Position numbers and translations under genes: made by a program. A stretch of 64,000 nucleotides of DNA, from contig NZ_JAFIBW010000001.1 in assembly GCF_017833295.1 (NCBI RefSeq), positions 744,001 to 808,000 of the forward strand. Direction: 5' to 3'. Source of the DNA: Methylobacterium sp. PvR107 (GTDB lineage: Bacteria > Pseudomonadota > Alphaproteobacteria > Rhizobiales > Beijerinckiaceae). Positions 17,692 through 34,756 of this stretch are shown here, piece after piece. Under the pieces are notes generated by a model. It was given only the letters and a program-made list of their open reading frames with translations, was not told where the DNA came from and did not search any database. The first letter of the stretch is position 1, and the number at the start of each line of letters is the position of its first letter.

Positions 17692-20600
17692 ATGTCACAG
17701 CCTCCGGCAATTTCACCGCGCAGGGATGACCTCGCGTTGGGGCTGGTTGGACACCGCAATGGTGCCACAGTAAGGGGTGAGAGGGTACTCACTCGTCGAG
17801 AGCCGAGCCGACTTCCGATAACGAGCGTGTGCGAACCGAACGTGACACAACGTACAGACATTGCGATCGTCGGACGCGCTTGCCGACTGCCCGGGGCCCC
17901 CAGTGTGGATGGGCTGTGGTCACTCCTCTCCGAGGGGCGCTGCGCCGTCAGCAAGGTGCCGGCCGACCGGTTCTCCCTGGAGCGGTTCGCGCATCCCCGC
18001 GCCCATGAGCGTGGCAAGAGCTACACCTGGGCGGCGGGCGTCATCGACGACGTGTGGTCGTTCGACCCGGCGGTGTTCGGCATCTCGCCCCGCGAGGCCG
18101 AGCAGATGGATCCGCAGCAGCGGATGCTGCTGGAGCTGACCTGGGAGGCCCTCGAGGATGCGGGCCTGCGCCCGTCGAGCGTGGCCGGCAGCAACATCGG
18201 CGTGTTCGTCGGCGCCTCGTCGCTCGATTACGGCAACCTGCGCATTCTCGACGCGCCGTCGGGCGATGCCTACGCGGCGACCGGCAACACGCTCTCGATC
18301 ATCTCGAACCGCATCTCGTACATCTTCGACCTGAAGGGCCCGAGCTTCACGGTCGACACGGCCTGCTCGTCCTCGCTCGTCGCCTTCGACAACGCCGTGC
18401 AGGCGATCCGGTCGGGCCGCGTGGACACCGCGGTCGTCGCCGGCGTGAACGTGCTGGCGAGCCCGTTCAACTTCATCTGCTTCTCCACCGCGCAGATGCT
18501 CTCGCGCACCGGCCTGTGCCAGGCGTTCTCCAAGAACGCCGACGGCTACGTGCGCTCGGAGGGCGGCGTGGTGTTCGTGCTGCAATCGGCCGAGGCCGCG
18601 CGGCGCAACGGCGCCACGGTCCGCGCCGTGGTGGCGGCCTCGGGGATCAACTCCGACGGCCGCACCACCGGCATTTCGCTCCCCTCGGGCTACGCCCAGG
18701 GCGCCCTGCTGGAGAAGGTCTATCGCGAGGCCGAGATCGGGCTCGACGACCTCGCCTTCATGGAAGCCCACGGTACCGGCACGCCGGTCGGCGACCCGAT
18801 CGAGGCCTCGGCCATCGGCTCGAAGCTCGGCCGCGGCCGGCAGGCGCCGCTGCCGATCGGCTCGATCAAGACCAATATCGGCCATACCGAGCCGGTTTCG
18901 GGCCTCGCCGGCCTGATGAAGGCGACGCTGGCGCTGGAGCACGACCTCGTGCCGCCGTCGCTGCACGCGGCCGAGCTGAATCCCGAAATCCCCTTCGGCG
19001 AGCTGAACCTGCAGGTCGTGCGGGAGGCCATGCCGATCAGCCGTGGCTCGCGCGAGCGCTTTGCGGGCGTGAACTCCTTCGGCTTCGGCGGCACCAACGC
19101 CCACGTGGTGATCACCGACGCGCCCGCCTGGGCGACGCAGGCGGGTGCCACCGCGGAGCCCAAGGCCCAGGTGCTGCTGCTCTCGGCACAGACCCGGGCT
19201 GCCCTGAACGAATTGGCCCTGGACTACGCCGAGCGCCTGGAGGCCGAGCCGGCCCAGGTCCCGACCGTGGCGGCCGCCGTCGCGCATCGCCGCGAGCGCA
19301 TGCCGGCCCGCCTCGCCATCGCGCTCGACGGTAAGACCGACGTGGCCGCGGCCCTGCGTGCCGTCGGCGAGGGCGAGGACACCCAGGACGCCTTCACCGG
19401 CACCGCAGTCGACCGCGTCGCCGAGGTCGCCTTCGTCTATTCGGGCAATGGCAGCCAGTGGGCCGGCATGGGCCGCGAGGCCTACGAGGAGAACGCGACG
19501 TTCCGCGCCGCCTTCGACCGGATCGATACCCTGTTCCGGGTTCATTCGGACTGGTCGCTGAAGGACGCGCTCTACGCGGAGGACCTCGACGAGCGCCTCG
19601 TGCTCACCAGCGTCTCGCAGCCGCTGATCTTCGCCATCGAGAGCGCCTCCACGGCCGCGCTCAGGGCGAAGGGCCTGATCCCGTCCTACGTGCTCGGCCA
19701 CAGCGTCGGCGAGATCGCGGCCGCCGAGGCCGCCGGCGTCCTGAGCCTGGAGGACGCGGTCCGGGTCATCTACTACCGCAGCCACCACCAGGAGACGACG
19801 CACGGACAGGGCACCATGGCGGTGCTGCTGATGCCGTCCGAGGAGGTCGAGACCTTCCTCAAGGATTACCCGACCCTCGACATCGCCGCCTACAACAGCC
19901 CGAAGGCTGTCACGGTCGCGGGTCCGGTGGCCGATATCGACGCCGCCCTCAAGGCCCTGTCGCGCAAGCGCCGCCGCGGGCGCAAGCTCGACCTCGCCTA
20001 CGCCTTCCACGGAAGGCTGATGGACCCGACCGAGAAGCCGCTTCTGCGCGACCTCGCCGGGCTGAAGGCCCGGGCCGGCACCACCGCGATGGTCTCGACC
20101 GTCACAGGCTCTGTGTTGGACGGAAGCCATTTCGGCGCCTCCTACTGGTGGCGCAACATCCGCGAGCCGGTGCGCTTCTCCGAAGCCGTGCAGGACGCCA
20201 CCCGCCGCGGCGCCCGCGTCTTCGTCGAGGTCGGCCCGCGCGCGACCCTCATGTCCCATGTCGGCGACGCGGTCGAGCCGCTCGGCATCGAGACCGCCAC
20301 GGTCGGCGTGATGCACCGCAAGGCGTCGGGCGGCGACCCGATCGCCAAGGCCGTAAACGCCGCCCTGGTCCAGGGCGCGCAGGTCGACGAGACCCTGCTG
20401 TTCGGCGACGCGCCGAAGGGCGACGTCCGCCTGCCGACCTATCCCTGGCAGCGCCGTCCGTTCCGGCTGGCCGACACCACCGAAGGCGTCGGCGCGATGA
20501 GCGCCCGCCCCTACCACCCGCTGATCGGGTCGCGCACGACCTTCGACGGTCTGGAGTGGAACGGCTTCGTCGATCCGGCGACCGTGCCCGAGTTGGAGGA

Positions 20601-23600
20601 CCACAAGGTCGACGGCCAGGTGATCATGCCCGGCGCCGGCTTCGTCGAGATGGCTTTGGCCTGCGTCCGCGAGGCGATGCGCGACGATGAGGTCGTGCTG
20701 GCCGATTTCGAGATCGTCGCGCCGATGGTGTTCGCCGAGGATGCCCTGCGCGAGGTCGCGGTGCGCCTGTCGGGCTCCGGCAACGGCATCCAGGTGCTGA
20801 GCCGGCCGCGCCTGACCCAGACGCCCTGGCAGCTCCACGCCCAGGCCAAGATCGTCGAGGGCACCTTCTCGGCCCCGAAGACGCCGGATCTCGACGGCTT
20901 CAGCTTCGAGACCGCGGGCGAGCATGTGCTCAGCGGCGACGCGCTCTACGCCAAGGCCCTCGCCTCGGGGCTCGCCTTCGGGCCGAGCTTCCAGCAGGTC
21001 GCGATGAGCGCCCGTCTCGACGACGCCACCATCGTCTCCGACCTGCTGCCGGCTGAGCCCGACAGCCGCTACGCCCTGGTGCCGAACCGGCTCGATGCCT
21101 GCTTCCACGGGCTGATCCTGCTCTTCGCCGACCTGCTCGGCGAGAACGGCGGCAAGGCCTACATCCCGGTGCGCTTCGGCGAGGTCCGGCTGCTGCGCCC
21201 AGGCGCGGTGATCGCCCGCTCGATCATCCGCACCCGCCGCTGCAACGAGCGCTCGATCCTGGCCGACTTCACCCTCCTCGACGCCGAGGGCGCGGTGGTC
21301 GCCACGATCCGCGAGGGCCGGTTCCAGGCCCTGCGCTCCAAGCATGGCGGCGATCTTGCGGCCTTCGCGATCTCGCAGGTCCCGGAGCTGGCCACCGAGC
21401 CGACCGCGATCCCGATGGAGCGCCGGCCGAGCGTGGCCGCGCGGCTGCGTCCGCTCGCCGCCGAGGCGAAGGGGCCGGCCGACGCCGCCCTGTCGCCGGG
21501 CCACCTCCTGCTGGAGGGCTGGGCGACCTCGCTCGCCTACCGCCTCGCCTCCGGGCTGGCGCAGGGCGAGACCGTGTCGGTCACCGACAGCCGCGTGCCG
21601 GAGGCGCTGCGCCCCTGGCTGCTGAACGCCCTCTACGCCCTCGACAGCAGCGGCCTCGCCGAGCGCGCGGGCCAGAACTGGACGCTCGGCGACGGTTCAG
21701 CCCTCCCGGCGCCCGACGAGATCATGCGCTGGATCGCCGGCGACCATCCGGATCTCTCGGCCGAGCTCGTGCTGATCGCCGATGTCGGCGCTCTGGTCGA
21801 CCGGCTGCTCGCCGGCAAGCTCACCGACGCGCCGGCCCTGCCGCAGGGGGCGATCGACGCCTTCGTGCTGCGCTCGGCCACCGCGCGCCACGGCGCCGAC
21901 GTGGTCGCCGCCCTGATCGAGCGGAGCCGTGCCCAGCTCCCGAAGGAGCGGGCGCTGCGGTTCCTCCAGGTCGGGTTCGGCCCGCTCTCGGCGCAGACCG
22001 CGAGTTTCGCGTCCGCCGCCGAGGCCCGGCTCACCGTCTTCGAGACCGACCGTCGGCTCGCCGAGCGCGCCCGCCTGTCCCTCGGCCGCGCCGCCGCCGT
22101 GGTCGAGACCGCCGAGGAGCTCCCTCCCGGCAGCTTCGACCTGATCCTGGCGTCCGGCAGCCTGCACCGTGGTGACCGCGCCCTTCCGGGCCAGCTCGCC
22201 GGGGCGCTCGCCACCGGTGGCCTGCTGGTGGCCGTCGAGCCGGGAGCGTCCCTGTTCCGCGACCTCGTGTTCGGCCTCACGTCCGGCTGGTTCGAGGAGG
22301 CCGCGGGCGGCCTGCCCGTCGGCCGGCTTGAGGATATCGAGGGCTGGCAGCGGACGCTCAGCGCCCACGGCCTCGTCAAGGTCGAGGTCGAGCGTGCGGC
22401 CTCCGCCAACGGCGACGACCTGCTGCTGACCGCCGAGGCGCCGGTACGTCCGGGCCCGGCCCCGGCGCAGAGCTTCGCCTTCGTCATCGGTTCGGACGAC
22501 GAGTTCGCGGCCGAGACCGCCTCCTCCCTGGCGACCCTGCTGGTCGCGGGCGGCGTGCATGTCTCGATCATCCTCGACTCCGAGACCTCCCTGATGGAGC
22601 TGGAGAAGGAGACCCCCGACACGGTGGTGTTCCTGGCCGGCGCCTTCACCCGGGGCGGCGAGGCGGCCGAGCGGCTGCGCGACCGCTGCCTCAGCCTCAA
22701 GCGCTGCACGGAGCATCTCGGCGCCCGTCAGACCCGCCTTTGGGTCGTGGCGCCCGGCGCCACCCGCGATCGCGGCGGCCAGACCACCAACATCGAGGCC
22801 GGCGTGTGGGCCTTCTCCCGCACCCTCGCCAACGAGGCCCCGAACCTCGACGTCCGCCGCATCGACCTCTCCCCCGAGATGTCGTCGAAGCGCGCCTCCG
22901 AGCGCCTGCGCGACCTCATCCTCTCCGGCACCCCGGAGACCGAGATCGTGCTGGACGACGAGCGGACCCAGGTTGTGCGGTTCCATGCCGGCCGGCCGCA
23001 GCATCGGGATCCGGCGGATCTGGTCCCGGCCGAGGCCGCGCGCCTGGAGCGCAGCAACACCGGCGGCCTGAGCGAGATGGTCTGGGGTCCGGCCGAGCGC
23101 CGCACTCCCGGCAAGGGCGAGATGGAGATCGCGGTCGAGGCCACCGGCCTCAACTTCCGCGACGTGCTCTGGGCGCTCTCGATGCTCCCCGAGGAGATCC
23201 TGGAGGACGGCTTCGCCGGCCCCCGCCTCGGCCTCGAATGTGCCGGCCGCGTCACCGCCGTCGGCCCGGGCGTGAAGGGCTTTAAGGTCGGCGATCCGGT
23301 CGTCGCCTTCGCCCAGTCGGGCTTCGCCACCCACATCGTGGTGCCCGATCTCGTCGTCGCGCCGATGCCGCATGGCCTCGACTCGATGGCGGCCGCCACC
23401 GTGCCGGTGGCCTTCCTCACCGCCTATTACGGCCTCGTCTCCTGCGCCCGGATGCGGCGCGGCGAGTGGGTGCTGGTCCATGGCGGCGCGGGCGGCGTCG
23501 GCTTGGCGGCCCTGCAGATCGCCAAGCTTAAGGGCGCGCGGGTCATCGCCACGGCCGGCTCCCGCGAGAAGCGGGCGCTCGTGAAGGCGCTGGGTGCCGA

Positions 23601-25284
23601 GCACGTGCTCGATTCGCGCTCGCTCGCCTTCGTGGACGAGGTTCGGGCGATCACCGGCGATGGTGTCGACATCGTGCTGAACAGCCTGTTCGGCGAGGCG
23701 ATGGAGCGCTCGCTCAACGCGCTGCGGCCCTTCGGCCGGTTCGTCGAGCTGGGCAAGCGCGACTACGTCGCCAACACCCATATCGGCCTGCGCCCGTTCC
23801 GGCGGAACCTCAGCTACTTCGGCGTCGACCTCGACCAGGTGATCCAGCACCAGGGCGACGACGGCGCGCGGATGTTCCGCGAGGTCATGGCCCTGTTCAA
23901 CGACGGCGGCCTCAAGCCCCTGCCCTACCAGCCCTTCACGGCGGCCGAGACCTCGGACGCGTTTCGGCTGATGCAGCAGTCGGGTCACATCGGGAAGATC
24001 GTGATCAGCCCGCCCAAGGCCGGCACGATCATGAAGGACACGGCCCGGCCGTTCACGGTCTCGGCCGAGGGCGTCCACCTGCTGACCGGCGGCCTCGGCG
24101 GCTTCGGCCTCGAGGCGGCGCGCTGGCTGATCGACCGGGGCGCCAAGCATCTCGTGCTCGCGGGCCGCAAGGGTGCGGCCACCGACGAGGCCAAGGCGAT
24201 CGTCGCGGAGCTCACGGCGCGCGGCGTGACCGTCGAGGCCAAGGCCGTCGACATCACCAGCCGCGCCTCGGTGGACCGGCTCATCGCCGGGATCGAGCAG
24301 GGCGGCAAGAAGCTGGCCGGCGTGCTCCACGCCGCGGCGGTTCTCCAGGACGGCCTGATCTCCAACATCGACGCGGCTGCGCTCGACGCGGTGATTGGCC
24401 CGAAGGTGGTCGGCGCCCAGCACCTGGACGCCGCGACCCGCGACCGGAGCCTCGACTACTTCGTCCTGTTCTCCTCGGCGACGACCTTCATCGGCAATCC
24501 GGGCCAGGGCTCCTACGTGGCGGCCAACGGCTTCATGGAGGGGTTGGCGCGGCAGCGTCGTCGCCGCGGCCTGCCCGCTTTGGCGGTGGCCTGGGGCGCC
24601 ATCGGCGACGTCGGCATGCTCGCCCGCAACAAGGCGGTCATGGAAGGCCTCGCCGGCCGCGTCGGCGTCACGCCGATGGAGGCCCGCCGCTGCCTCGACC
24701 TGATGGCCGAGGCGCTGGGTAGCCAGGGCGCGTCGCCCGACGAGGCCGTCATCGCCATTGCGGCGATGCACTGGGGCAAGGCGCGCGAGCGTCTCGCCAC
24801 CATGCGCTCGCCGAGCTACGCCGAACTCGGGTCTGACCAGCAGGCGGAGGCCGGCGGCGTCCAGGCGATCAACATCGCGGCGCTGCTCAAGGGCGGCGAC
24901 CTCGACGTGGTCCGCAAGACCGTGTCGGACGCGATCGTCGAGGACATCGCCCGCATCCTGCGGCTGCCGAAGGACGACATCAGCCGGGTGCGCCAGCTCT
25001 CGGAGATCGGCCTCGACTCGCTGATGGGCGTCGAGCTCGGCGCCAGCCTGCAGGAGCGCTTCGCCCTCGACGCGCCGCCGGCAGGCCTGTCCTCGGGCAT
25101 GACCGTCAACGAGCTGTCGGAGTCCTTAATTCAGGCGGTTTCCGCGCCCATGGACGAGGCGGCCGGCGTCGCGATGAGCCTTGTCTCGAAGCATGTCGGC
25201 GGTGAGGTCGATGCGCAGATGATCGCGCCGCTCAGGGAACTCATCGAGCAGACGTCCAGCGGAATCAAAGAGACCAACTCATGA
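17692..25284 (+). CDS. rkpA: Reducing type I polyketide synthase, RkpA-like (KS-AT-DH-MT-ER-KR-ACP)
   Basis: A 2530-residue iterative-type synthase. Domains in order: ketosynthase about 56-480 with Cys225, His360 and His398; acyltransferase about 577-915 with GHSVGE (Ser671) and YAFH; dehydratase about 945-1200 with DHKVDGQVIMPG (His971) and Asp1135; a degenerate methyltransferase-like segment near 1420-1560 whose SAM loop reads VGFGPL; enoylreductase about 1790-2110 with VHGGAGGVGLAA; ketoreductase about 2125-2345 with TGGLGGFGLEAA and Tyr2275; ACP about 2425-2500 with GLDSL (Ser2443). There is no thioesterase. Full reduction predicts a saturated, fatty-acid-like chain. S. meliloti RkpA, needed for K-antigen, has the same design. 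The N-terminal 55 residues look non-native, so the true start may be later. Confidence 0.9.
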   Translation: MSQPPAISPRRDDLALGLVGHRNGATVRGERVLTRREPSRLPITSVCEPNVTQRTDIAIVGRACRLPGAPSVDGLWSLLSEGRCAVSKVPADRFSLERFAHPRAHERGKSYTWAAGVIDDVWSFDPAVFGISPREAEQMDPQQRMLLELTWEALEDAGLRPSSVAGSNIGVFVGASSLDYGNLRILDAPSGDAYAATGNTLSIISNRISYIFDLKGPSFTVDTACSSSLVAFDNAVQAIRSGRVDTAVVAGVNVLASPFNFICFSTAQMLSRTGLCQAFSKNADGYVRSEGGVVFVLQSAEAARRNGATVRAVVAASGINSDGRTTGISLPSGYAQGALLEKVYREAEIGLDDLAFMEAHGTGTPVGDPIEASAIGSKLGRGRQAPLPIGSIKTNIGHTEPVSGLAGLMKATLALEHDLVPPSLHAAELNPEIPFGELNLQVVREAMPISRGSRERFAGVNSFGFGGTNAHVVITDAPAWATQAGATAEPKAQVLLLSAQTRAALNELALDYAERLEAEPAQVPTVAAAVAHRRERMPARLAIALDGKTDVAAALRAVGEGEDTQDAFTGTAVDRVAEVAFVYSGNGSQWAGMGREAYEENATFRAAFDRIDTLFRVHSDWSLKDALYAEDLDERLVLTSVSQPLIFAIESASTAALRAKGLIPSYVLGHSVGEIAAAEAAGVLSLEDAVRVIYYRSHHQETTHGQGTMAVLLMPSEEVETFLKDYPTLDIAAYNSPKAVTVAGPVADIDAALKALSRKRRRGRKLDLAYAFHGRLMDPTEKPLLRDLAGLKARAGTTAMVSTVTGSVLDGSHFGASYWWRNIREPVRFSEAVQDATRRGARVFVEVGPRATLMSHVGDAVEPLGIETATVGVMHRKASGGDPIAKAVNAALVQGAQVDETLLFGDAPKGDVRLPTYPWQRRPFRLADTTEGVGAMSARPYHPLIGSRTTFDGLEWNGFVDPATVPELEDHKVDGQVIMPGAGFVEMALACVREAMRDDEVVLADFEIVAPMVFAEDALREVAVRLSGSGNGIQVLSRPRLTQTPWQLHAQAKIVEGTFSAPKTPDLDGFSFETAGEHVLSGDALYAKALASGLAFGPSFQQVAMSARLDDATIVSDLLPAEPDSRYALVPNRLDACFHGLILLFADLLGENGGKAYIPVRFGEVRLLRPGAVIARSIIRTRRCNERSILADFTLLDAEGAVVATIREGRFQALRSKHGGDLAAFAISQVPELATEPTAIPMERRPSVAARLRPLAAEAKGPADAALSPGHLLLEGWATSLAYRLASGLAQGETVSVTDSRVPEALRPWLLNALYALDSSGLAERAGQNWTLGDGSALPAPDEIMRWIAGDHPDLSAELVLIADVGALVDRLLAGKLTDAPALPQGAIDAFVLRSATARHGADVVAALIERSRAQLPKERALRFLQVGFGPLSAQTASFASAAEARLTVFETDRRLAERARLSLGRAAAVVETAEELPPGSFDLILASGSLHRGDRALPGQLAGALATGGLLVAVEPGASLFRDLVFGLTSGWFEEAAGGLPVGRLEDIEGWQRTLSAHGLVKVEVERAASANGDDLLLTAEAPVRPGPAPAQSFAFVIGSDDEFAAETASSLATLLVAGGVHVSIILDSETSLMELEKETPDTVVFLAGAFTRGGEAAERLRDRCLSLKRCTEHLGARQTRLWVVAPGATRDRGGQTTNIEAGVWAFSRTLANEAPNLDVRRIDLSPEMSSKRASERLRDLILSGTPETEIVLDDERTQVVRFHAGRPQHRDPADLVPAEAARLERSNTGGLSEMVWGPAERRTPGKGEMEIAVEATGLNFRDVLWALSMLPEEILEDGFAGPRLGLECAGRVTAVGPGVKGFKVGDPVVAFAQSGFATHIVVPDLVVAPMPHGLDSMAAATVPVAFLTAYYGLVSCARMRRGEWVLVHGGAGGVGLAALQIAKLKGARVIATAGSREKRALVKALGAEHVLDSRSLAFVDEVRAITGDGVDIVLNSLFGEAMERSLNALRPFGRFVELGKRDYVANTHIGLRPFRRNLSYFGVDLDQVIQHQGDDGARMFREVMALFNDGGLKPLPYQPFTAAETSDAFRLMQQSGHIGKIVISPPKAGTIMKDTARPFTVSAEGVHLLTGGLGGFGLEAARWLIDRGAKHLVLAGRKGAATDEAKAIVAELTARGVTVEAKAVDITSRASVDRLIAGIEQGGKKLAGVLHAAAVLQDGLISNIDAAALDAVIGPKVVGAQHLDAATRDRSLDYFVLFSSATTFIGNPGQGSYVAANGFMEGLARQRRRRGLPALAVAWGAIGDVGMLARNKAVMEGLAGRVGVTPMEARRCLDLMAEALGSQGASPDEAVIAIAAMHWGKARERLATMRSPSYAELGSDQQAEAGGVQAINIAALLKGGDLDVVRKTVSDAIVEDIARILRLPKDDISRVRQLSEIGLDSLMGVELGASLQERFALDAPPAGLSSGMTVNELSESLIQAVSAPMDEAAGVAMSLVSKHVGGEVDAQMIAPLRELIEQTSSGIKETNS

Positions 25285-26648: not shown

Positions 26649-26706
26649 GCGCGGCCGGGGCCTCCGGCCCCGGATCGTGGCCGATACCGGACGATCGACG
26701 AAAACC

Positions 26707-26741
26707 GAAAACGGGCGCGGATCCCATCCGCGCCCGTTTTC
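26707..26741. terminator. Bidirectional terminator between the PKS operon and the exporter gene
   Basis: A perfect 16-bp stem, GAAAACGGGCGCGGAT and its complement, with a three-base loop CCC; A-run before and T-run after allow use on both strands. It separates the converging alpha-oxoamine synthase and exporter genes. Confidence 0.95.
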
Positions 26742-26795
26742 GCATTCGGTCGAGCATCGGTCCGTCGTCGCCGGCCTCGGGACCGGCCACGCGTC

Positions 26796-27983
26796 CTACT
26801 TCGCGTAGTAATACGCCGTTGCGACCGACGAGATCGGTCCGGTGACGCCGCTGAACGCGGAGAGCACCTTGGAGACCTCAGTGAACGGCGCATTCGAGAC
26901 GTAGATGAGGTCGCGGTTGCGCATCCGGAACGCCTGGGAGACGAACAGGCTGTTGGGGTCGCGCATGTCGATCCGGTAGACCACCGGCACCAGCGGCGTG
27001 CCGAGCAGCCGCGAGCCGGGGCTGAGCCGGCGCACGACGCTGGCCGGCTCGAACCGGAAGATGAACGTGCCGGCCGGGTCGGCGGCGAAGTCCGACAGGC
27101 CGCGGGCCTTGGCCAGCGCCTGCGCCAGGGTGATGCCGTCGGCCTGGAACGCCAGCTCGGTGCTGTTGCCCAGCGCGCCGACCGCGATGAAGGTCTGCGG
27201 ATCGCGCACCAGCGTGAGCACGTCGTTGGGCCGCAGGTAGATGTTCTCCTTGGGGTTCGACACCACCGCGGTCAGCGGCACGGTGGCGGTGACCGGCCCG
27301 CGCGAGAGCCGCACGAAGGTCTCGCTGACCGGCGCGCGGTTGCCGCCGGCGGCCGCGATGACGTCGAGGATGCGGTCGCCGTGGCCCGAGAGCGGCAGGC
27401 GGGCGCCGGCCGCGCCCTCGCCGGTGACGGTCACGGCCTGGCTGATCGGCCGCGTGACCGAGACCAGCACCTGCGGCTGGATGGCCTTTCCGGCGAGCTC
27501 GGTCTCGATCAGCGCCTGCACGTCCTGGGTGCGGCGGCCGGCGACCTTGATGCGCCCGGCATAGGGCACCGAGATGGCGCCGTCGCGCCCGACCGGCTGC
27601 TCGGGGATGAGGGCGGACTTGGAGCCGGCCGAGAACCGGTCGGCGACCAGCGGCCCGGAGAACAGGCCGCCGGAGCCGGCTTCCCAGACCGAGACCGAGA
27701 CCATGTCGCCGATGCCGATGACCGGCTCGGTCGAGGGGCGGTGGTCGCCGAACGAGGCGAGCAGGCTGTCCAGCGGACGGCCGCGCAGGGCCTCGACCAC
27801 GCTGGGGGTGACGTCGATGATCTCGTAGCGCGCCACCAGGCCGCCATCGGCGGTCGCAACCTCCGCACCCGCCTGGATCGCGCTCGCCGTCGGACCCGCC
27901 GCGGGCAGGTACGTGCAGCCGCCGACCGATCCCGCCGCCAGTGCGGCCATCAAGGCGGTGCGCGTCGTCTTACGCAGCATCAC
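26796..27983 (-). CDS. Polysaccharide export lipoprotein, Wza/KpsD type
   Basis: A 395-residue outer-membrane polysaccharide exporter. A lipoprotein signal ends at VGGCTYLP, with Cys about residue 23 as the lipidated position. The export domain begins with IGIGDMVSVSVWEAG, and continues with RDGAISVPYAGRIKVAGRRTQDVQALIE, the Wza signature. Two SLBB-type domains follow (QVLVSVTRPISQAVTVTGEG and PQTFIAVGALGNSTELAF), as in Wza-family octamers. ATG 27980 or GTG 27983 can start it; GGAG lies 8-11 bases upstream. It is oriented against the PKS operon but belongs with the KpsC- and KpsS-like genes functionally. No inner-membrane Wzc or Kps ABC genes are present in the window, so these must lie elsewhere. 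Confidence 0.9.
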   Translation of the reverse strand: MMLRKTTRTALMAALAAGSVGGCTYLPAAGPTASAIQAGAEVATADGGLVARYEIIDVTPSVVEALRGRPLDSLLASFGDHRPSTEPVIGIGDMVSVSVWEAGSGGLFSGPLVADRFSAGSKSALIPEQPVGRDGAISVPYAGRIKVAGRRTQDVQALIETELAGKAIQPQVLVSVTRPISQAVTVTGEGAAGARLPLSGHGDRILDVIAAAGGNRAPVSETFVRLSRGPVTATVPLTAVVSNPKENIYLRPNDVLTLVRDPQTFIAVGALGNSTELAFQADGITLAQALAKARGLSDFAADPAGTFIFRFEPASVVRRLSPGSRLLGTPLVPVVYRIDMRDPNSLFVSQAFRMRNRDLIYVSNAPFTEVSKVLSAFSGVTGPISSVATAYYYAK

Positions 27984-28174
27984 AGAGACTTCTCCTCGCC
28001 GAACCCCCTGCCATCGCTGGCATGGGCCGGGACATCCAGTTTGATCGCCAAACGCTGCGATCGCTTTAACGGCCGCGCCGAACCCGCGGCCGTCTGGCGG
28101 ACGGTCGCGCTATCGGTCGGCAATGCGTCACCAGCGTGGCACGGCCACGCTTATGGCGTTCAAGCTTAACCGTA

Positions 28175-29665
28175 TCATGTCCGAACGGCCATGTCCGCAG
28201 GCGCGGTGGCGAGGGCGCCGCGAAGCGCCCGCCCGAGGGCATCGGCGGGCATATCGACCCGGCGCGGTGGGGCCGACGCGTGGCCGAAGCGGAACAGGGC
28301 GTATTCGGTGGTCCGGCCCCCGAAGCCTGGCTTGCAGGTCGGCAGCGAGGGCGCGTGGTCTCCGAATACGCAGAGCGTCATCGTCTGACGACGCTCGCGG
28401 GCCAGGGCATCGAGCCCCTCCACGAGGGCCTCCACCATCCGCCCGGTATTGGCGACGTGGTGGAGGTACTGCGCCTGCGGGTCGTCGAGCCCGGGCAGCC
28501 GACCGGGCTTCCAGGGACCGTGATTTTCCATGGTGACGCAGAACAGGAACAGCGGCGTCGGTCGGGCTCGCACCTCGGCCAGCAGGCGCTCGCCCAGGGC
28601 GACGTCCCCGACATACGGGCCGACCCGCGGCGCCTCCGCAAAGGCCTCACCCATCACGAGGTCGGCGAAGCCGAACGCCTCCATGATCGTCGCCCGGCGG
28701 AAGAAGTCCCGGTGGAAGGGGTGGAGAAACAGGGTCGCGTAGCCTCGGGCCCGGGCAAGACGGGCGAGGCTCGTCGGCTCGTCGCCGCTGCGCGACGTGT
28801 AGGGATCGTACCGGCCGAAGCCGAGGCTGTCGGACGGCCGGCCGGTGAGCACCGCGTGCTCGCTGCGCATCGTGTAGGCGCCGTGCGCCGGCACCTGGAG
28901 ACGGCCATACTGCGCGGCCCGCGTCCGGAACAGCTCCATCGCCGGCAGCCTCGCGCCGCCGAGCCGCTCCGGGTCGATGAAGGATTCGAGCTGGACCACC
29001 ACCACGACGTCGTCGCCCGTTCCGGAGGGCAGCGTCGGCGCTTCGGGTACCGGCTCGCCACCCGCCAGCGCCCGGGCGGTGTAGCCGAGAAGGCTCGCCG
29101 GAAGGCCGACCCGGGCCACGTCCGCCTCCAGGTCAGGGCGCGGGAACCAGCGGGCGATCAGCCCGGTGAGCGGAGGCCGCGGCGCGGCCTTGACCACCAG
29201 CCAGAGCAGCAGCGGCAGGCCGAGGAGGGCAAGGACGCGCGGCAGGGTGGACGCGGGCAGCACGCTCGGCTCGGTCCGGTACCACAGCACGGTGGCCGCC
29301 AGGGTGAGCAGGACGGGCACGGAGATGCGCGGATCCCATAGCGGCGGGATGTAGTAGAGCTGCGGGTGGCGCGGCACCTGCGGCAGCAGGGCGAAATCGC
29401 TGAACAGCAGCGGTTCGCCGATCACCGAGCGCTTGGCGCGGCTGACGACGATGAGGATCGCCACGGTGATCACGCAGGTCAGCGCGGCGAGCCAGGGCCG
29501 CCAGGAGAATTCGAACCAGAACAGCAGGATCAGCAGGTAGCCGGCAAGCCGCAGGCCGAGGTCGCGCGGCGCGAGGCTCGCCCGGGTGATCGAGTCGCCG
29601 ACGAACACCTCCAGGGCAAGGCAGACGGCGAGCGCGAGGCCGGTGGCAATGAGGAAGGTCGTCAA
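28175..29665 (-). CDS. LTA-synthase-like membrane enzyme, probable RkpI homologue
   Basis: A 496-residue protein with about four to five N-terminal membrane helices (first 180 residues, e.g. LGLRLAGYLLILLFWFEF and ISVPVLLTLAATVLWY) and an extracytoplasmic alkaline-phosphatase/sulfatase-superfamily domain. The latter shows VVVVQLESFIDP, HGAYTMRSEHAVLTG with a Thr in the nucleophile position, VTMENHGPW, and FGDHAPSLP as metal ligands. Lipoteichoic acid synthases, phosphoethanolamine and phosphoglycerol transferases share this layout, so a transfer of a phosphoalkyl group to a glycan or lipid at the outer face is likely. Position beside KpsC/KpsS-like genes agrees with rkpI of the rhizobial K-antigen cluster. 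The donor and acceptor are not known. Confidence 0.82.
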   Translation of the reverse strand: MTTFLIATGLALAVCLALEVFVGDSITRASLAPRDLGLRLAGYLLILLFWFEFSWRPWLAALTCVITVAILIVVSRAKRSVIGEPLLFSDFALLPQVPRHPQLYYIPPLWDPRISVPVLLTLAATVLWYRTEPSVLPASTLPRVLALLGLPLLLWLVVKAAPRPPLTGLIARWFPRPDLEADVARVGLPASLLGYTARALAGGEPVPEAPTLPSGTGDDVVVVVQLESFIDPERLGGARLPAMELFRTRAAQYGRLQVPAHGAYTMRSEHAVLTGRPSDSLGFGRYDPYTSRSGDEPTSLARLARARGYATLFLHPFHRDFFRRATIMEAFGFADLVMGEAFAEAPRVGPYVGDVALGERLLAEVRARPTPLFLFCVTMENHGPWKPGRLPGLDDPQAQYLHHVANTGRMVEALVEGLDALARERRQTMTLCVFGDHAPSLPTCKPGFGGRTTEYALFRFGHASAPPRRVDMPADALGRALRGALATAPADMAVRT

Positions 29666-29882
29666 GACTCGGGCACTCGGCGTGGGACGGGCCTGCTCGC
29701 CGCCGGGCGACGGTCCGGCGGGAAACAGCGCGCGAAAGCAAGGGTTTGCGAGCCGCTCCTAATCCGTATTGTTCGGGGGCGGCCCGGGGCGTGCTGCGGA
29801 CGGCCGACCTGAGCGGCGTGCGCTATCGCCTTGGTCTCACAGCAAGATCTGGGAAATCGGGTTCCTTGCCCCGGGAGCCGTC

Positions 29883-31385
29883 TCATTGCGGGCCGCCTCC
29901 GGTCTCGCGGCCGACGCCGCGCCGGCTGCGCAGAGCCCGCACGATCGGGTTGAGGAGCCCGTAGCGGGCGCGCATCAGCAGATGGGCCGCCCGTCCGATG
30001 GACAGGGCGCTGCGCGGCGCCGCGTCTCGGGCCGCGCTGAGCCGGTCGAGGAGCTGCTCCGGGCTGCACGGCTTCATCGCCACGGGATCGAGGTAGCGCG
30101 GATAGAGGATCATCGCCCCGGCCACCAGCGCATCGAGGCTCAGCCGGCGGCCCCGGTCGGCCCCCGGCGCCAGATCCTCCGACAGGCCCCAGCCCGCGTA
30201 GAAGGGCCGGCCATGCGTCGCCACGGTGAGGCCGCGGATCAGCGCCTCGAAGCCGGCGAGAGACGTCATGGTCTCGACGTGGTGCACCCGGTCGAGCAGG
30301 TCGACGATGCTGATGCCGGCGACGATCCGGTCGGCCAGCGTCAGCGCCTCCGCCTCCGGGATGGTGCCGGGGCGGAAGCCCGCCTCCACGTCGGGATGCG
30401 GCTTGTAGAGCAGGAACGCGTCCGGGTTGCGCCGCCGCGCCGCCTGCAGGAGCGCCCGGTTCGAGCGGACCAGGGGCGAGCCGTGCCGCACCGAGGCGTC
30501 GTCCTCCACCTGGCCGGGCACGAGCACGATCCGCTGTCCGGCCGGCCAGTCGAGGGAAGCGGCGTCGAGGCCGACATTGTACTTGCTGAGCCGGCGCGCC
30601 ACGACCTCCTCGCGCAGGCGGCGCGCCCGGTCGACGAGGTCCGGGGTGAAGTCCGCCTCGGCGAGCAGCCGCTGGAGGCGGCTCTCCCGGCGCGGGTCGT
30701 AGTAGATGCCGAGATCGTCGACCACGATGGAGGCGCCCGGCTGCAGGCTGGCACCGAGACCGACCGAGCGCAGGAATCCGTCCTCCACCCGGGCCAGCGG
30801 CAGCCCGGCCTGCGCGCAGGCCTCCTCCAGCTGGCCCGGCGCCCGGGTCGCCCAGGCGAGGACACGGCCGCGATGACGCCGGCCGGCCCTGATGGCGGCC
30901 TCGGTGGTCATGGTGTGGATCGGGCGCCCGGCGGGCCCGGCCGCGAGCACGTCGAGGGCCGGCCGCTTCCAGCGCGACATCCCGACATAGATGACCCGCC
31001 GGTCGTTCTCGGAAAAGCGCGCGGCGAGCCACGCCACCCGCTCGGCGCAGGCCGCGCGGTCGATCGGCGCCCGGGTCCAGGGATCGAGGTAGTGGACGCC
31101 GGCCTCCCCGCCGACCGGCACACCGTCGAGGCTGATCCTCAAGGACGCGAAACCGGTCTCCGGCGCGTCGTACGGGCTGAGGAGCGGCCCGGGTGCGACC
31201 ACGAGGCGGCGCCGGCCCGCCAGCGCCAGCAGACGCCCGGCCGGGCTTCCGGCGCCCCAGACCGCACCGACCGCACCGGACTGCGCCGGCGCGAAGGCGA
31301 GGCCCGTCGCGGCCTCGATCTCCGCCCGCAGACGGCGGATCGTGCGGCCGGTCGCGTAGAGCGACGGGGTGGGTCTAGAGGCCAT
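29883..31385 (-). CDS. Capsule polysaccharide synthesis protein, short KpsC-like
   Basis: A 500-residue protein related to KpsC, the Kdo-transferase that builds the linker joining group 2 capsules to phosphatidylglycerol. Recognisable stretches are IYVGMSRWKRPAL, ARVEDGFLRSVGLG, SIVVDDLGIYYDPRRESRL, VPGQVEDDASVRHG, LYKPHPDVEAG, VHHVETMTSLAGFEAL and YAGWGLSEDLAPG. E. coli KpsC is about 670 residues with two transferase domains; here only one complete domain plus a short N-terminal part is present. ATG 31385 is taken because the upstream extension (MSKSFPGRGGG...) looks random. The gene points away from the KpsS-like gene across a 334-base gap. Confidence 0.85.
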   Translation of the reverse strand: MASRPTPSLYATGRTIRRLRAEIEAATGLAFAPAQSGAVGAVWGAGSPAGRLLALAGRRRLVVAPGPLLSPYDAPETGFASLRISLDGVPVGGEAGVHYLDPWTRAPIDRAACAERVAWLAARFSENDRRVIYVGMSRWKRPALDVLAAGPAGRPIHTMTTEAAIRAGRRHRGRVLAWATRAPGQLEEACAQAGLPLARVEDGFLRSVGLGASLQPGASIVVDDLGIYYDPRRESRLQRLLAEADFTPDLVDRARRLREEVVARRLSKYNVGLDAASLDWPAGQRIVLVPGQVEDDASVRHGSPLVRSNRALLQAARRRNPDAFLLYKPHPDVEAGFRPGTIPEAEALTLADRIVAGISIVDLLDRVHHVETMTSLAGFEALIRGLTVATHGRPFYAGWGLSEDLAPGADRGRRLSLDALVAGAMILYPRYLDPVAMKPCSPEQLLDRLSAARDAAPRSALSIGRAAHLLMRARYGLLNPIVRALRSRRGVGRETGGGPQ

Positions 31386-31719
31386 GGTCGGCGCGTCCGG
31401 CTCCGGTCGGGCAAGGTGGTGGGCCGCCTGTAGCGCATTTTCGTCGGCGTGGGATGGCCGTGCAACGCGGGGACAACCTCGGCCGACGTCACCGCCGCCA
31501 CGACCTGGAAAGGATTTGGACATATCGTCGCCGCGATTGCCGGCCTAATCCGAATCCCGAACCGCTGACGCGCCACCGTTGCAGACGGGCCACGCCGACG
31601 CGGAAAAACCGTGCTGCGGCACGGCTTTGGATTGCCGGGCCGTCAGGCTCCGTGCCACCTGATGATTTATCATCGGCCCGGCTCGTCCGGCCCAGGGTCA
31701 AGGATAGAAGCGCCGCGGA
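31386..31719. other. Divergent intergenic region between KpsC-like and KpsS-like genes
   Basis: These 334 bases should hold back-to-back promoters. I see no gene. A symmetric hexamer pair GATGAT-TT-ATCATC at 31661-31674, about 46 bases before the KpsS-like start, is a candidate operator. No clear -35/-10 pair was found. Confidence 0.5.
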
Positions 31720-33027
31720 ATGCAACAGCCCGCCCCCGACGCCCTCCGTAACCGCCCTGCGACCTTCCTCTTCCTTCAGGGCATCGCCACGCCGTTCTTC
31801 TCCGACCTCGGAAAGGCGCTGCGCGCGCGGGGGCATCAGGTCCGGCGCATCAATCTCTGCCCCGGCGACTGGCTGTTCTGGAGCGGCGAGGCGGACAGTT
31901 ACCGCGGCCGCCGCGAGGCCTGGGGCGAGTATCTCGACTCCTATCTCGACCGCGAGAGCGTCACCGACATCGTGCTGTTCGGGGATTGCCGGCCGTTCCA
32001 CAAGGCCGCCCGGATGATCGCCGAGTATCGCGGCCTGCGGGTGCACGTGTTCGAGGAGGGCTACATCCGCCCGAACTGGATCACTTGCGAGCTGGGCGGC
32101 GTGAACGGCTTCTCGTCGCTGCCGCGGACGGCCGACGAGATCCGGGCCCTGGCGCGGCGCCTGCCGCAACCGGGCCGGGCGATGCCCTCCACGGGCGACA
32201 TGGCCCGACGCAGCATCTGGGACGTCGGCTACAACCTCGCCAACGTCCTGTTCCCCTACCTCTTCCCGCATTTCCGCAGCCATCGGCCGACCCATATCGC
32301 GGCCGAATACGCGGGCTGGATCAAGAAGTTCACCCGCCGCGCCCACACCCGCCGCGAGGCCGCGCGCTGCGACGAGATCTACCGCGCCGTCGGCTGCGAC
32401 TACTTCCTGCTGCCCCTCCAGCTCGACAGCGATTACCAGATCCGGGTCCACTCGCCGTTCCTCGGCGTCGAGGGCTTCATGGATCGGGTGATCAAGTCCT
32501 TCGCCGACGCCTCCGCGGCGCCGACGCGTCTGCTGGTGAAGCTGCACCCGCTCGACAGCGGCCTGATCAATTGGCGCAAGTTCGCCCGCGCCTCGGCCCG
32601 CCGCCACGGCGTCAGCGACCGGCTCGACTTCATCGACGGCGGCGACCTCCCGGCCCTGATCAAGGGCGCGCGCGGCGTGGTCATCGTCAACTCGACGGTG
32701 GGCATGCTGTCGCTGGAGATGGGCTGCCCCACCCACGCGGTCGGCAGTGCGATCTACAACATGGCCGGCCTGACCCATCAGGGCGACCTCGACGGATTCT
32801 GGAAGAGCCCGACGGCGCCCGATATGAGCCTGATGGCCGATTTCCGCCGCGTCGTGCTGCATCGGACTCAGGTCAACGGCGGCTTCTTCTCCAAGGAAGC
32901 CATCGACCGGGCCGTGGCCGGCTCTGTGCCGCGGATGGAGGCGGCCCTCCCAGATTCGATGCTGGCGGCGGCGCGGGCGATCCGCGAAACGGCTGCGCGG
33001 GACGGCGAACTCGCCCCGGTTTACTGA
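31720..33027 (+). CDS. Capsule polysaccharide export protein, KpsS-like (probable RkpJ)
   Basis: A 435-residue cytoplasmic protein of the KpsS/LipB family, which works with KpsC to add beta-linked Kdo to a phosphatidylglycerol acceptor for capsule anchoring. The family start FLFLQGIATPFFSDLGKALRARGH and INLCPGDWLFW are present, with DIVLFGDCRPFHKAA, VFEEGYIRPNWITCE, LLPLQLDSDYQIRVHSPF, LLVKLHPLDSG and VVIVNSTVGMLSLEMGCP, all in usual order. ATG 31720 has AGGATAG upstream. It is divergent from the KpsC-like gene. S. meliloti RkpJ is a capsule-export protein of this kind, from memory. Confidence 0.9.
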   Translation: MQQPAPDALRNRPATFLFLQGIATPFFSDLGKALRARGHQVRRINLCPGDWLFWSGEADSYRGRREAWGEYLDSYLDRESVTDIVLFGDCRPFHKAARMIAEYRGLRVHVFEEGYIRPNWITCELGGVNGFSSLPRTADEIRALARRLPQPGRAMPSTGDMARRSIWDVGYNLANVLFPYLFPHFRSHRPTHIAAEYAGWIKKFTRRAHTRREAARCDEIYRAVGCDYFLLPLQLDSDYQIRVHSPFLGVEGFMDRVIKSFADASAAPTRLLVKLHPLDSGLINWRKFARASARRHGVSDRLDFIDGGDLPALIKGARGVVIVNSTVGMLSLEMGCPTHAVGSAIYNMAGLTHQGDLDGFWKSPTAPDMSLMADFRRVVLHRTQVNGGFFSKEAIDRAVAGSVPRMEAALPDSMLAAARAIRETAARDGELAPVY

Positions 33028-33134
33028 CCGAAATCCGCGCGGGCAGAGAGATCTGGGGCATTTGACTCGGCTTTCGCCGTCGGTGAGCTCCTCCCGACCT
33101 TGATCTTTCCACGCCCGGCGGCGTAACCCGCCCC

Positions 33135-33902
33135 ATGCCCCGCATTCTGATCACCGGCGCGTCGAGCGGCATCGGCGCTGCGCTGGCGCGCCACTACGCG
33201 CAACCCGGCGTCAGCCTCATCCTCGTCGGCCGCAACGCCGAGCGCCTGGAGACGGTCGCCCGCGACTGCCGCGCCAGCGGCGCCACGGTCGATGCCGCCC
33301 GCCTCGACACCCGCGACCGGGCCGCCGCGGTGGCGCTCGTGCGCCGGTCGGACGCGGAGGCGCCCCTCGACCTCGTCATCGCCAATGCCGCGGTAAACGG
33401 CGGCAACCAGGAGGGGCAGGTCGAGGCCGAGGACGTGGCCTTCGAGACCGCCGACATCAATTACACCGGCTCGCTCAATGTCGTGCTGCCCGGCCTGACG
33501 CTGATGCTCGAGCGCGGACGCGGCCAGATTGTCCTGCTGTCGTCGCTGGCGGCCTATGCGCCGCTGCAGGACGCCCCGGCCTATAGCGGCGCCAAGGCGG
33601 CCCTCGTTGCCCACGGTCTCGCGCTCCGCCAGAAGGTCGGGCCCCGGGGCGTGAAGGTCAACGTCGTGACCCCGGGCTACGTGAAGACCCCGATGGGCGG
33701 CGAGCTGAAGGGCTGGCGGCCTCTGGAGATCAGCGCCGAGCAGGCCGCCGTGCGCATCGCCAAGGGCATCGCGGCCAATCGCGACGTGATCGCGTTTCCC
33801 TTCATCCTCGCGGCGCTCGCCCGCACCGTGCTGCTCCTGCCGGAGAACGTCCGCAAGGCCGGGCTCTACGCCTTCCGCTTCCAGCGGCGGAAGCGTCGCT
33901 GA
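33135..33902 (+). CDS. Short-chain dehydrogenase, probable RkpH
   Basis: A 255-residue classical SDR. The cofactor motif GASSGIGAALARHY is at residues 8-21, followed by LDLVIANAAVNGG and VLLSSLAAYAP, and the active-site YSGAKAALVAHGLALR with Tyr and Lys. The C-terminal TPGYVKTPMGG and hydrophobic FILAALARTVLLLPENV suggest membrane association. The gene is next to the KpsS-like gene and overlaps the formyltransferase gene by one base (TGATG). In the rkp cluster RkpH is an SDR, and 3-ketosphinganine reductases are the same type. Reduction of the oxoamine synthase product to an amino alcohol is therefore plausible; this is inference. Confidence 0.88.
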   Translation: MPRILITGASSGIGAALARHYAQPGVSLILVGRNAERLETVARDCRASGATVDAARLDTRDRAAAVALVRRSDAEAPLDLVIANAAVNGGNQEGQVEAEDVAFETADINYTGSLNVVLPGLTLMLERGRGQIVLLSSLAAYAPLQDAPAYSGAKAALVAHGLALRQKVGPRGVKVNVVTPGYVKTPMGGELKGWRPLEISAEQAAVRIAKGIAANRDVIAFPFILAALARTVLLLPENVRKAGLYAFRFQRRKRR

Positions 33903-34756
33903 TGGCGCGGCCCCGGATCGCGCTGTTCGTCCTGGAGGCGCTGCCGAACGCCCGCGTGGTCCGCCGGCTCGTCGCCGATTACCGGGCCGACATCGCCTTC
34001 GTGGGACTCTCCAATGCCGAGCGGCCGTCGAGCGGCGGCCTGACCGGGCAGATCCGGCGGCACCTCGCGCGCTCGGGCGCCGGCATCCTGCCCTATCTGG
34101 CGGTCAATTTCGGCCTGCCGGACCTGCTGCGCCCGCTGGCGCCGCTGACGCAGGCGGCGGCCGGAAGCGGTGATGCGCCGGAAGCGACGCCGCTCAAGAC
34201 CCTGTGCCGGCGCCTCGACATCCCGACCCTGACGATTGACGACGTCAACGGTCCCGAGATCGCGCTGCGGCTGCGCGAGGCGGCGCCGGACCTGATCCTG
34301 ACCTACCATTTCGACCAGATCCTGAAGCCGGAGACGATCGGGCTGGCGCGGCTCGGGGGCATCAACGGCCATCCCGGCCTGCTGCCGCGCCACCGCGGCC
34401 CGGTGCCGACGATCCACGCCCTGGCCGAGGGCCCCGGTAGCTTCGGCATGACCCTGCACCGGCTGGCCGCGACCATCGACACTGGGGCGATCCTCGCCCA
34501 GGAATCCGTGCCCCTGCCCCCCGGCACCACCGCGACCCGGGCTGCCGTGGCGCTGCATGCCCACGGGCGCGGCCTGCTGGACGGGCTTCTCGACACGATC
34601 GCCCGGACCGGCGCGATGCCCGAGGGCCGGACCCATGCGGTGCTGCCGTACTGCCCGTTCCCGGACCGGGCGATGCTGGCATCCCTGCGCCGTCGGGGCC
34701 TGCGGCTGACCGACGGTCAGGATCTCCGGGAGGCGCTGAGCCTTTCGGTCCGGTGA
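33902..34756 (+). CDS. Formyltransferase-family protein
   Basis: A 284-residue protein of the methionyl-tRNA/glycinamide formyltransferase fold. The catalytic region reads GGINGHPGLLPRHRGPVPTIHALAEG, with the Asn and His of the N-H-D triad, and the Asp follows in ATIDTGAILAQES. This implies transfer of formyl from 10-formyltetrahydrofolate to an amine. It lacks the C-terminal tRNA-binding domain of Fmt and is not Fmt. The ATG overlaps the SDR stop by one base, so both are translated together. No formyltransferase is part of the rkp gene set I know, which makes it an added step. Formylation of an amino sugar or of the amino lipid produced by the synthase is possible. Confidence 0.85.
   Translation: MARPRIALFVLEALPNARVVRRLVADYRADIAFVGLSNAERPSSGGLTGQIRRHLARSGAGILPYLAVNFGLPDLLRPLAPLTQAAAGSGDAPEATPLKTLCRRLDIPTLTIDDVNGPEIALRLREAAPDLILTYHFDQILKPETIGLARLGGINGHPGLLPRHRGPVPTIHALAEGPGSFGMTLHRLAATIDTGAILAQESVPLPPGTTATRAAVALHAHGRGLLDGLLDTIARTGAMPEGRTHAVLPYCPFPDRAMLASLRRRGLRLTDGQDLREALSLSVR

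What the first reader, a model, noticed from the sequence alone, without database searches (positions are those of the whole stretch)
17692..34756. Polyketide synthase plus alpha-oxoamine synthase coupled to capsule genes: a likely sphingoid-like lipid pathway
A fully reducing seven-domain synthase lacks a thioesterase and ends in an ACP; its stop overlaps the start of an alpha-oxoamine synthase. An SDR, a formyltransferase, an LTA-synthase-like enzyme, Wza-, KpsC- and KpsS-like genes follow within 10 kb. The set resembles S. meliloti rkpA, G, H, I, J for K-antigen. Taken together the sequence predicts that a saturated chain leaves the ACP by decarboxylative condensation with an amino acid, is reduced to an amino alcohol and may serve as a capsule anchor. 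The lipid itself has, to my knowledge, not been defined.
Basis: partly seen in the sequence, partly recalled or inferred. Interest (0 to 1): 0.75.

Follow-up and report, generated by a model that had tools for sequence, protein, structure and literature searches.

The report
Capsule locus with sphingoid-lipid synthesis genes
A Methylobacterium chromosome carries, beside its capsule-priming genes, an iterative polyketide synthase coupled to a sphingolipid-type enzyme and a phosphoglycerol transferase relative, which suggests that these bacteria tether their sugar capsule with a home-made sphingoid lipid, a testable answer to the old question of what the rhizobial rkp-1 genes make.

Summary
The set is a rearranged Methylobacterium version of the Sinorhizobium rkp-1 capsule region, in three strand-separated blocks rather than one operon, plus a formyltransferase. 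The pathway idea is partly known: rhizobial papers call the rkp-1 product a lipid carrier or anchor, and in 2025 a related PKS plus oxoamine synthase (SgaAB, Pseudomonas) was shown to make C24-C28 sphinganines from serine, with probable phosphoglycerol-sphinganines (PMC12134224). What I add: the LTA-synthase-like gene is closest in fold to a phosphoglycerol transferase, abuts the SDR or PKS in 36 of 38 cases, and among 59 sampled genomes with KpsC/KpsS-type genes was found in 14 of 18 with a sphingoid-base synthase and 0 of 41 without. Best model: PKS-ACP hands a saturated chain to the oxoamine synthase, the SDR reduces the ketone, the LtaS-like enzyme adds phosphoglycerol, and this lyso-PG mimic is the acceptor for KpsS/KpsC. 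The first steps rest on a characterised relative; the phosphoglycerol and anchor steps are inferred. Against: a reported 'phospholipid anchor' in S. meliloti 1021, enzyme topology, and LtaS-like genes in some genomes without either partner.

The parts
17692..25284 (+). Iterative, fully reducing type I PKS/FAS (RkpA/SgaA type): KS-AT-DH-(degenerate MT)-ER-KR-ACP, no thioesterase found
   Evidence: Pfam scan, motif check against 5 homologues, 36-40% identity to them incl. the S. meliloti RkpA-position protein 40%
25281..26648 (+). Alpha-oxoamine synthase (RkpG/SgaB type), presumed PLP lysine K290 invariant in 20 rows; start overlaps PKS stop (ATGA)
26796..27983 (-). Wza/OPX outer-membrane polysaccharide export protein (RkpU-like)
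   Evidence: PF02563, PF22461; HMM 596 bits (the window protein was one of the rows of that HMM)
28175..29665 (-). LtaS/GacH-like membrane phosphoglycerol transferase homologue (RkpI-like); N-terminal hydrophobic segments plus sulfatase-fold domain
29883..31523 (-). KpsC-like beta-Kdo transferase with one transferase module found
   Evidence: PF05159 at 221-474; solved KpsC modules
31720..33027 (+). KpsS-like (RkpJ-like) first-Kdo transferase
   Evidence: PF05159 264 bits; NF050054 KpsS 255 bits, below its cut-off of 600
33135..33902 (+). SDR (RkpH/SgaC position), proposed 3-ketosphinganine reductase
   Evidence: PF00106; best NCBIfam model NF005437 is also the best for the Pseudomonas L110 cluster SDR, both below cut-off
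33902..34756 (+). Formyltransferase (PF00551), start overlaps SDR stop; proposed N-formylation of the base or of a sugar
   Evidence: PF00551 genes follow the AOS directly in 5 other loci

Best explanation
The genes make a sphingoid lipid on which the capsule is started. Step 1: the iterative PKS builds a long saturated acyl chain on its own ACP. Step 2: lacking a thioesterase, it hands the chain to the oxoamine synthase, which condenses it with an amino acid, most likely serine, releasing CO2 to give a 3-ketosphinganine. Step 3: the SDR reduces this to a sphinganine; in Methylobacterium the coupled formyltransferase may cap the amine. Step 4: the LtaS/GacH-like enzyme transfers phosphoglycerol from phosphatidylglycerol to the 1-hydroxyl, giving sphinganine-1-phosphoglycerol, a one-chain mimic of lyso-phosphatidylglycerol. 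Step 5: KpsS adds the first Kdo to the terminal glycerol, KpsC extends it, and the capsule grows and leaves through the OPX pore. Shown here: gene content, conservation, co-occurrence, predicted folds. Inferred from a characterised relative: steps 1-3 (serine use and chain length not shown here). Inference only: steps 4-5.
Against: A 'phospholipid anchor' is reported for the S. meliloti 1021 Kdo polymer (Fraysse 2005, title only; Pellock 2000 cited so in PMC7902896). LtaS-type domains act outside the inner membrane (recalled) while KpsS works at the cytoplasmic face, so a flip would be needed. LTAS was not found in 4 of 14 Methylobacterium genomes that keep AOS and PF05159. Outside the 16 AOS-clade genomes, 8 have LTAS at 240 bits or more; 5 of these lack PF05159 (G797, G571, G627, G474, G527), and in only two of those five (G474, G527) is a PKS match beside it. 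At E up to 1e-40 G717 (155 bits) has PF05159 but no AOS-clade or SPT match. G249 and G732 have the clade AOS without PF05159. In MYb115 raising sphinganine did not raise phosphoglycerol-sphinganine, whose structure was assigned by mass. The AOS passes no NCBIfam SPT cut-off; its best model is bioF, also below cut-off. BcsG, a phosphoethanolamine transferase (recalled), is not far below LtaS in fold score. Statistics are not corrected for kinship (16 AOS genomes, 8 families), score limits were set after seeing the lists, and searches scored only the best 3-4 candidates per genome. No KpsMT was found in the window, only weak KpsM matches in the genome.
Confidence: 0.45

Rival explanations
1. The PKS-AOS-SDR genes make a free sphingolipid (membrane lipid or signal), as claimed for SgaAB, and the capsule genes are neighbours for another reason.
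For: SgaAB lipids act on a nematode host and were described as secondary metabolites; in 8 of 20 Methylobacterium loci no part of the capsule block is within the ~20 kb read; G249 and G732 have the clade AOS without PF05159.
Against: Linkage to KpsS, KpsC, LTAS or OPX in 40 of 50 named loci against 0 of 14 control loci; co-retention when unlinked; rkp-1 is needed for K-antigen in Sinorhizobium (PMC4881576 passage).
Confidence: 0.15
2. The lipid is sphingoid and serves the capsule, but the LtaS-like enzyme decorates the exported polysaccharide with phosphoglycerol, and another route links lipid and Kdo.
For: LtaS-type make-up with a hydrophobic N-terminus; its nearest solved relative GacH adds glycerol phosphate to a polysaccharide (recalled).
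Against: 36 of 38 LTAS genes abut SDR or PKS; LTAS was not found at 240 bits in the 41 PF05159 genomes without a sphingoid-base synthase as counted here.
Confidence: 0.2
3. Conventional anchor: the capsule sits on lyso-PG as in E. coli, and the PKS lipid is only an accessory for export.
For: [quoted passage not shown] meliloti 1021, with a sentence each in PMC7902896 and PMC4881576.
Against: Does not explain why an LtaS-like enzyme and an SDR travel with PKS-AOS; a phosphoglycerol-sphinganine would also score as a phospholipid (inference).
Confidence: 0.2
4. The oxoamine synthase uses another amino acid (glycine, alanine), giving an amino ketone or 1-deoxy base without a 1-hydroxyl.
For: Best NCBIfam model is bioF (361.6 bits) above the SPT models (298.6 and less), none over cut-off.
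Confidence: 0.15

Closest known systems
Sinorhizobium meliloti rkp-1 region (rkpU, rkpA, rkpG, rkpH, rkpI, rkpJ)
   Same: Same six gene families; L108 order OPX-PKS-AOS-SDR-LTAS-KpsS-KpsF (rkp names assigned by order); AOS in the same clade
   Different: Window order is scrambled on both strands, adds KpsC-like and formyltransferase genes; the PKS is 40% identical
Pseudomonas fluorescens MYb115 SgaAB(C) sphinganine cluster (PMC12134224)
   Same: Single-module PKS plus AOS plus SDR
   Different: Nearest stand-ins are Pseudomonas L110 and L117
Paraburkholderia/Caballeronia/Burkholderia capsule clusters (wcbR/wcbT type; that naming is recalled)
   Same: SDR-LTAS-PKS-AOS in L109 and L111, with capsule export genes in L111
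   Different: An LpxC-like gene sits between PKS and AOS and often a GNAT follows; no formyltransferase match in the stretches read
Canonical bacterial sphingolipid pathway (SPT with separate ACP and acyl-CoA synthetase; PMC9386255 abstract start and passages)
   Same: Same enzyme class and proposed product type
   Different: Own genome has no match over the NF047603 cut-off; the acyl donor here is taken to be the PKS's own ACP
E. coli group 2 capsule (KpsS/KpsC on lyso-PG; PMC7694667 passages)
   Same: KpsS-like and KpsC-like Kdo transferases, OPX
   Different: Extra lipid-making genes; one module found in KpsC instead of two

Membership tests
rkp-1 type capsule lipid region | RkpA-type PKS directly followed by RkpG-type AOS | tested here: met
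rkp-1 type capsule lipid region | SDR, LtaS-like, KpsS-like and OPX genes close by | tested here: met
rkp-1 type capsule lipid region | Needed for capsule production or secretion | not testable with these tools
   needs mutants
SgaAB-type sphinganine cluster | Single-module, fully reducing PKS without thioesterase plus AOS in the SgaB clade | tested here: inconclusive
   architecture and clade with Pseudomonas cluster AOS met, but the SgaB sequence itself was not in hand
SgaAB-type sphinganine cluster | Serine-specific condensation, C24-C28 product | not testable with these tools
   needs enzyme assay and lipidomics
Canonical serine palmitoyltransferase (NCBIfam NF047599, NF047600, NF047603) | Score over the curated cut-off | tested here: not met
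   268.6/500, 298.6/640, 200.3/670
Alpha-oxoamine synthase superfamily | Fold and PLP lysine | tested here: met
LtaS/GacH phosphoglycerol transferases | N-terminal membrane segments plus sulfatase-fold domain with conserved nucleophile and metal ligands | tested here: met
LtaS/GacH phosphoglycerol transferases | Transfers glycerol phosphate from PG | not testable with these tools
   needs assay
ABC-transporter-dependent capsule | KpsS and KpsC Kdo transferases | tested here: met
   PF05159 in both; one module found in the KpsC-like protein
ABC-transporter-dependent capsule | KpsMT transporter with KpsE | tested here: inconclusive
   no match in the window; two weak KpsM-like matches elsewhere in the genome

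The most novel reading that the evidence does not exclude
There is a further kind of lipid anchor for ABC-exported capsules, next to lyso-PG-Kdo and the Vi-type acylated hexosamine (PMC12220298 passage): a PKS-derived sphinganine-1-phosphoglycerol, N-formylated in Methylobacterium. The RkpI-type LtaS-like enzyme is the missing phosphoglycerol transferase, and the SgaAB clusters published as secondary-metabolite sphingolipid clusters are in fact capsule-anchor loci.
Probability: 0.22. Interest if true: 0.85.

Novelty: new variant of a known kind. Interest (0 to 1): 0.6.

Why it matters
In the passages seen here the product of rkpA, G, H and I is described only as a lipophilic molecule, lipid carrier or anchor. 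Linking it to a biochemically characterised sphinganine pathway, and giving the LtaS-like gene a definite job, turns that question into a direct lipidomics test. If true it would join two separate literatures (rhizobial K-antigens and PKS-made sphingolipids), explain the phosphoglycerol sphinganines of Pseudomonas, and suggest that many Proteobacteria not known to make sphingolipids use them at the cell surface.

Tried and rejected
Considered and rejected: (a) a chance grouping (see controls); (b) canonical SPT elsewhere in the same genome, no NF047603 match over cut-off; (c) a C-methylating PKS, because the MT-like stretch lacks a SAM motif in all six proteins compared; (d) a specific KDSR label for the SDR: NCBIfam and PDB sequence searches give only general SDR matches, so the reductase role rests on context; (e) serine specificity from fold: SPT and KBL structures are nearly tied.

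Led nowhere: paper search joining rkpG with serine palmitoyltransferase (0 papers); WcbR/WcbT capsule papers (4 listed, none opened); Kiss 1997 and Muller 2009 (PMC ids) and Fraysse 2005 are not held and are cited by title from other papers' reference lists; sponge PKS papers concern mainly other sub-families; own-genome KpsM-like neighbourhoods gave two transposases, a methyltransferase, an ABC2-membrane match below its cut-off and four proteins without a Pfam match. That the anchor of this pathway is not in print rests, 82 of an open-licence library only.

Rows dropped: of 80 named loci, 26 under 19 kb and 4 without a strong PKS match were left out of the 50-locus count; 40 of the 144 extracted AOS sequences were left out of the tree to thin near-duplicates. 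In the 59-genome count, G082, which has a divergent AOS (323 bits) and PF05159 but no LTAS match, was counted as without a sphingoid-base synthase. The 14 control loci come from four genomes. Several loci counted (the plasmid-collection ones) also supplied rows of the HMMs.
Full report
WHAT IS THERE. The window lies in a Methylobacterium chromosome (G000, one contig of 6.36 Mb, window at 744001-808000; nearest named AOS is 98% identical, M. tardum). The genes of the finding are real. Block 1, plus strand: PKS 17692-25284 and oxoamine synthase (AOS) 25281-26648, sharing ATGA. Block 2, minus strand: KpsC-like 29883-31523, LtaS-like 28175-29665, OPX 26796-27983. Block 3, plus strand: KpsS-like 31720-33027, SDR 33135-33902, formyltransferase 33902-34756, the last two sharing one base.

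THE SYNTHASE. Pfam gives KS, AT, DH, ER, KR and ACP and no thioesterase among 17 families. A methyltransferase-like stretch is under its cut-off and lacks a SAM motif in all six proteins compared. Patterns for the other active sites match in the window protein; single patterns failed in some homologues (patterns recalled). A fully reduced, unbranched chain is therefore expected. Identity to the S. meliloti RkpA-position protein is 40%, to the Pseudomonas plasmid homologue 36%.

WHAT IS ALREADY KNOWN. Peters et al. 2025 (PMC12134224; abstract and sections 7, 8, 9, 15 read, passages elsewhere) show that P. fluorescens MYb115 SgaA (PKS) and SgaB (AOS) make C24, C26 and C28 sphinganines. Purified SgaB is nearly exclusive for serine, a nearby SDR (SgaC) is the proposed reductase, and compounds 154 Da heavier are read as phosphoglycerol sphinganines. 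They count 6,101 homologous clusters, dominantly in Burkholderia. Words beginning capsul, rhizobi, polysaccharide, kps and LTA do not occur in the main text. [quoted passage not shown] A phospholipid anchor is reported for that polymer (Fraysse 2005, title only; a sentence in PMC7902896). In E. coli, KpsS adds the first Kdo to (lyso-)PG and KpsC extends it (PMC7694667 passages).

THE SET IS CONSERVED. S. meliloti Ak57 (L108) shows OPX-PKS-AOS-SDR-LTAS-KpsS-KpsF, with the LTAS gene (rkpI position) missing from the PLSDB table but present in the DNA. Paraburkholderia, Caballeronia, Shinella and a Pseudomonas plasmid carry overlapping sets in other orders, with KpsMT, KpsE, KdsA, KdsB or KpsF nearby in some. 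Acidisoma has SDR, AOS, KpsS, KpsC, LTAS and KpsMT but no PKS in the 25 kb read. With strict score limits 29 of 50 show LTAS, 21 an SDR, 26 a kps-type or Kdo gene, 43 any of these; 7 show none. Only about 2.4 kb upstream of the PKS is visible, so these are lower bounds. As a control, 0 of 14 regions around BioF, ALAS, SPT and other AOS genes in four genomes hold KpsS, KpsC, LTAS, OPX or PKS matches.

WITHIN THE GENUS. All 37 genomes of the genus examined (own plus 36) have the AOS. In 20 loci read at about 20 kb, the whole block follows in 8, a rearranged block without LTAS in 3, OPX alone in 1, and none of it within reach in 8. Of 14 genomes with unlinked, incomplete or contig-cut loci (13 of those read, plus G583), all keep PF05159 genes and 10 keep the LTAS-like gene elsewhere. 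In G522 PKS-AOS and the block OPX-LTAS-KpsC-KpsS-SDR lie on two contigs. This suggests that the two parts are retained together by selection, not only by linkage. Exceptions: G249, of the same family, has two clade AOS copies and no PF05159 match, and G732 has the AOS and LTAS but no PF05159 match.

MECHANISM. A phosphoglycerol transferase acting on a sphinganine would give the +154 Da lipid seen in MYb115; I saw no enzyme named for that step in the sections read. That product has one chain, a phosphate and a terminal glycerol, as lyso-PG has; KpsS could thus accept it. The Pseudomonas cluster L110 has six gene steps from PKS to SDR, with LTAS at step five; the MYb115 locus tags span six steps too. 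I therefore predict an LtaS-like gene at KW062_RS19780 and a capsule function for SgaABC. Neither was checked, as I had no copy of that genome.

WEAK POINTS. LtaS domains normally face outward (recalled) while KpsS works inside, so a flip is needed. LTAS was not found in four Methylobacterium genomes that keep AOS and PF05159. Sphinganine and phosphoglycerol-sphinganine levels did not move together in MYb115. The reported phospholipid anchor of S. meliloti 1021 may be a true glycerolipid. My odds: sphingoid product about 0.75, lipid serves the capsule about 0.65, whole scheme 0.45. The rivals overlap, so their odds need not sum to one.

THE FORMYLTRANSFERASE. In the 11 Methylobacterium loci with the block it is next to the SDR. 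In five other loci (L133, L135, L136, L137, L165) a PF00551 gene follows the AOS directly. Elsewhere GNAT or LpxC-like genes take similar places. This suggests a variable N-cap on the base, but sugar formylation is not excluded: its best solved relative is ArnA.

Noticed in passing
window 33902-34756; L133, L135, L136, L137, L165 just after the AOS: Formyltransferase genes recur beside the SDR or the AOS in separate lineages, hinting at an N-formylated sphingoid base.
   Followed up: partly
L109, L111, L144, L151, L166, L169 and other Burkholderiales loci: An LpxC-like deacetylase gene sits between PKS and AOS and in many of them a GNAT gene follows; its substrate in this pathway is unexplained.
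   Followed up: partly
window 29883-31523: One transferase module was found in the KpsC-like protein where E. coli KpsC has two; it matches solved KpsC chain 6mgd (215 bits) far better than the other KpsC chains (144-149 bits).
   Followed up: no
L116 (Acidisoma plasmid): AOS, SDR, LtaS-like, KpsS, KpsC and KpsMT together without a PKS in the 25 kb read: the base may be made there from ordinary acyl-ACP or acyl-CoA.
   Followed up: no
L113 5584-13182 and L114 8341-13164: ACP-AOS fusion synthases in Planktothrix and Streptomyces; no capsule genes are annotated in the stretches shown.
   Followed up: partly
L085, L086, L087 (three Methylobacterium genomes): Rearranged capsule block without the LtaS-like gene; no LTAS match elsewhere in these genomes at E 1e-30.
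   Followed up: partly
L108 14292-15851: The S. meliloti LtaS-like (rkpI position) gene is missing from the PLSDB gene table although the frame is open.
   Followed up: yes
G797, G571, G627 (L274-L276): LtaS-like relatives (253-274 bits) in genomes without the clade AOS or PF05159; what they act on is unknown.
   Followed up: no
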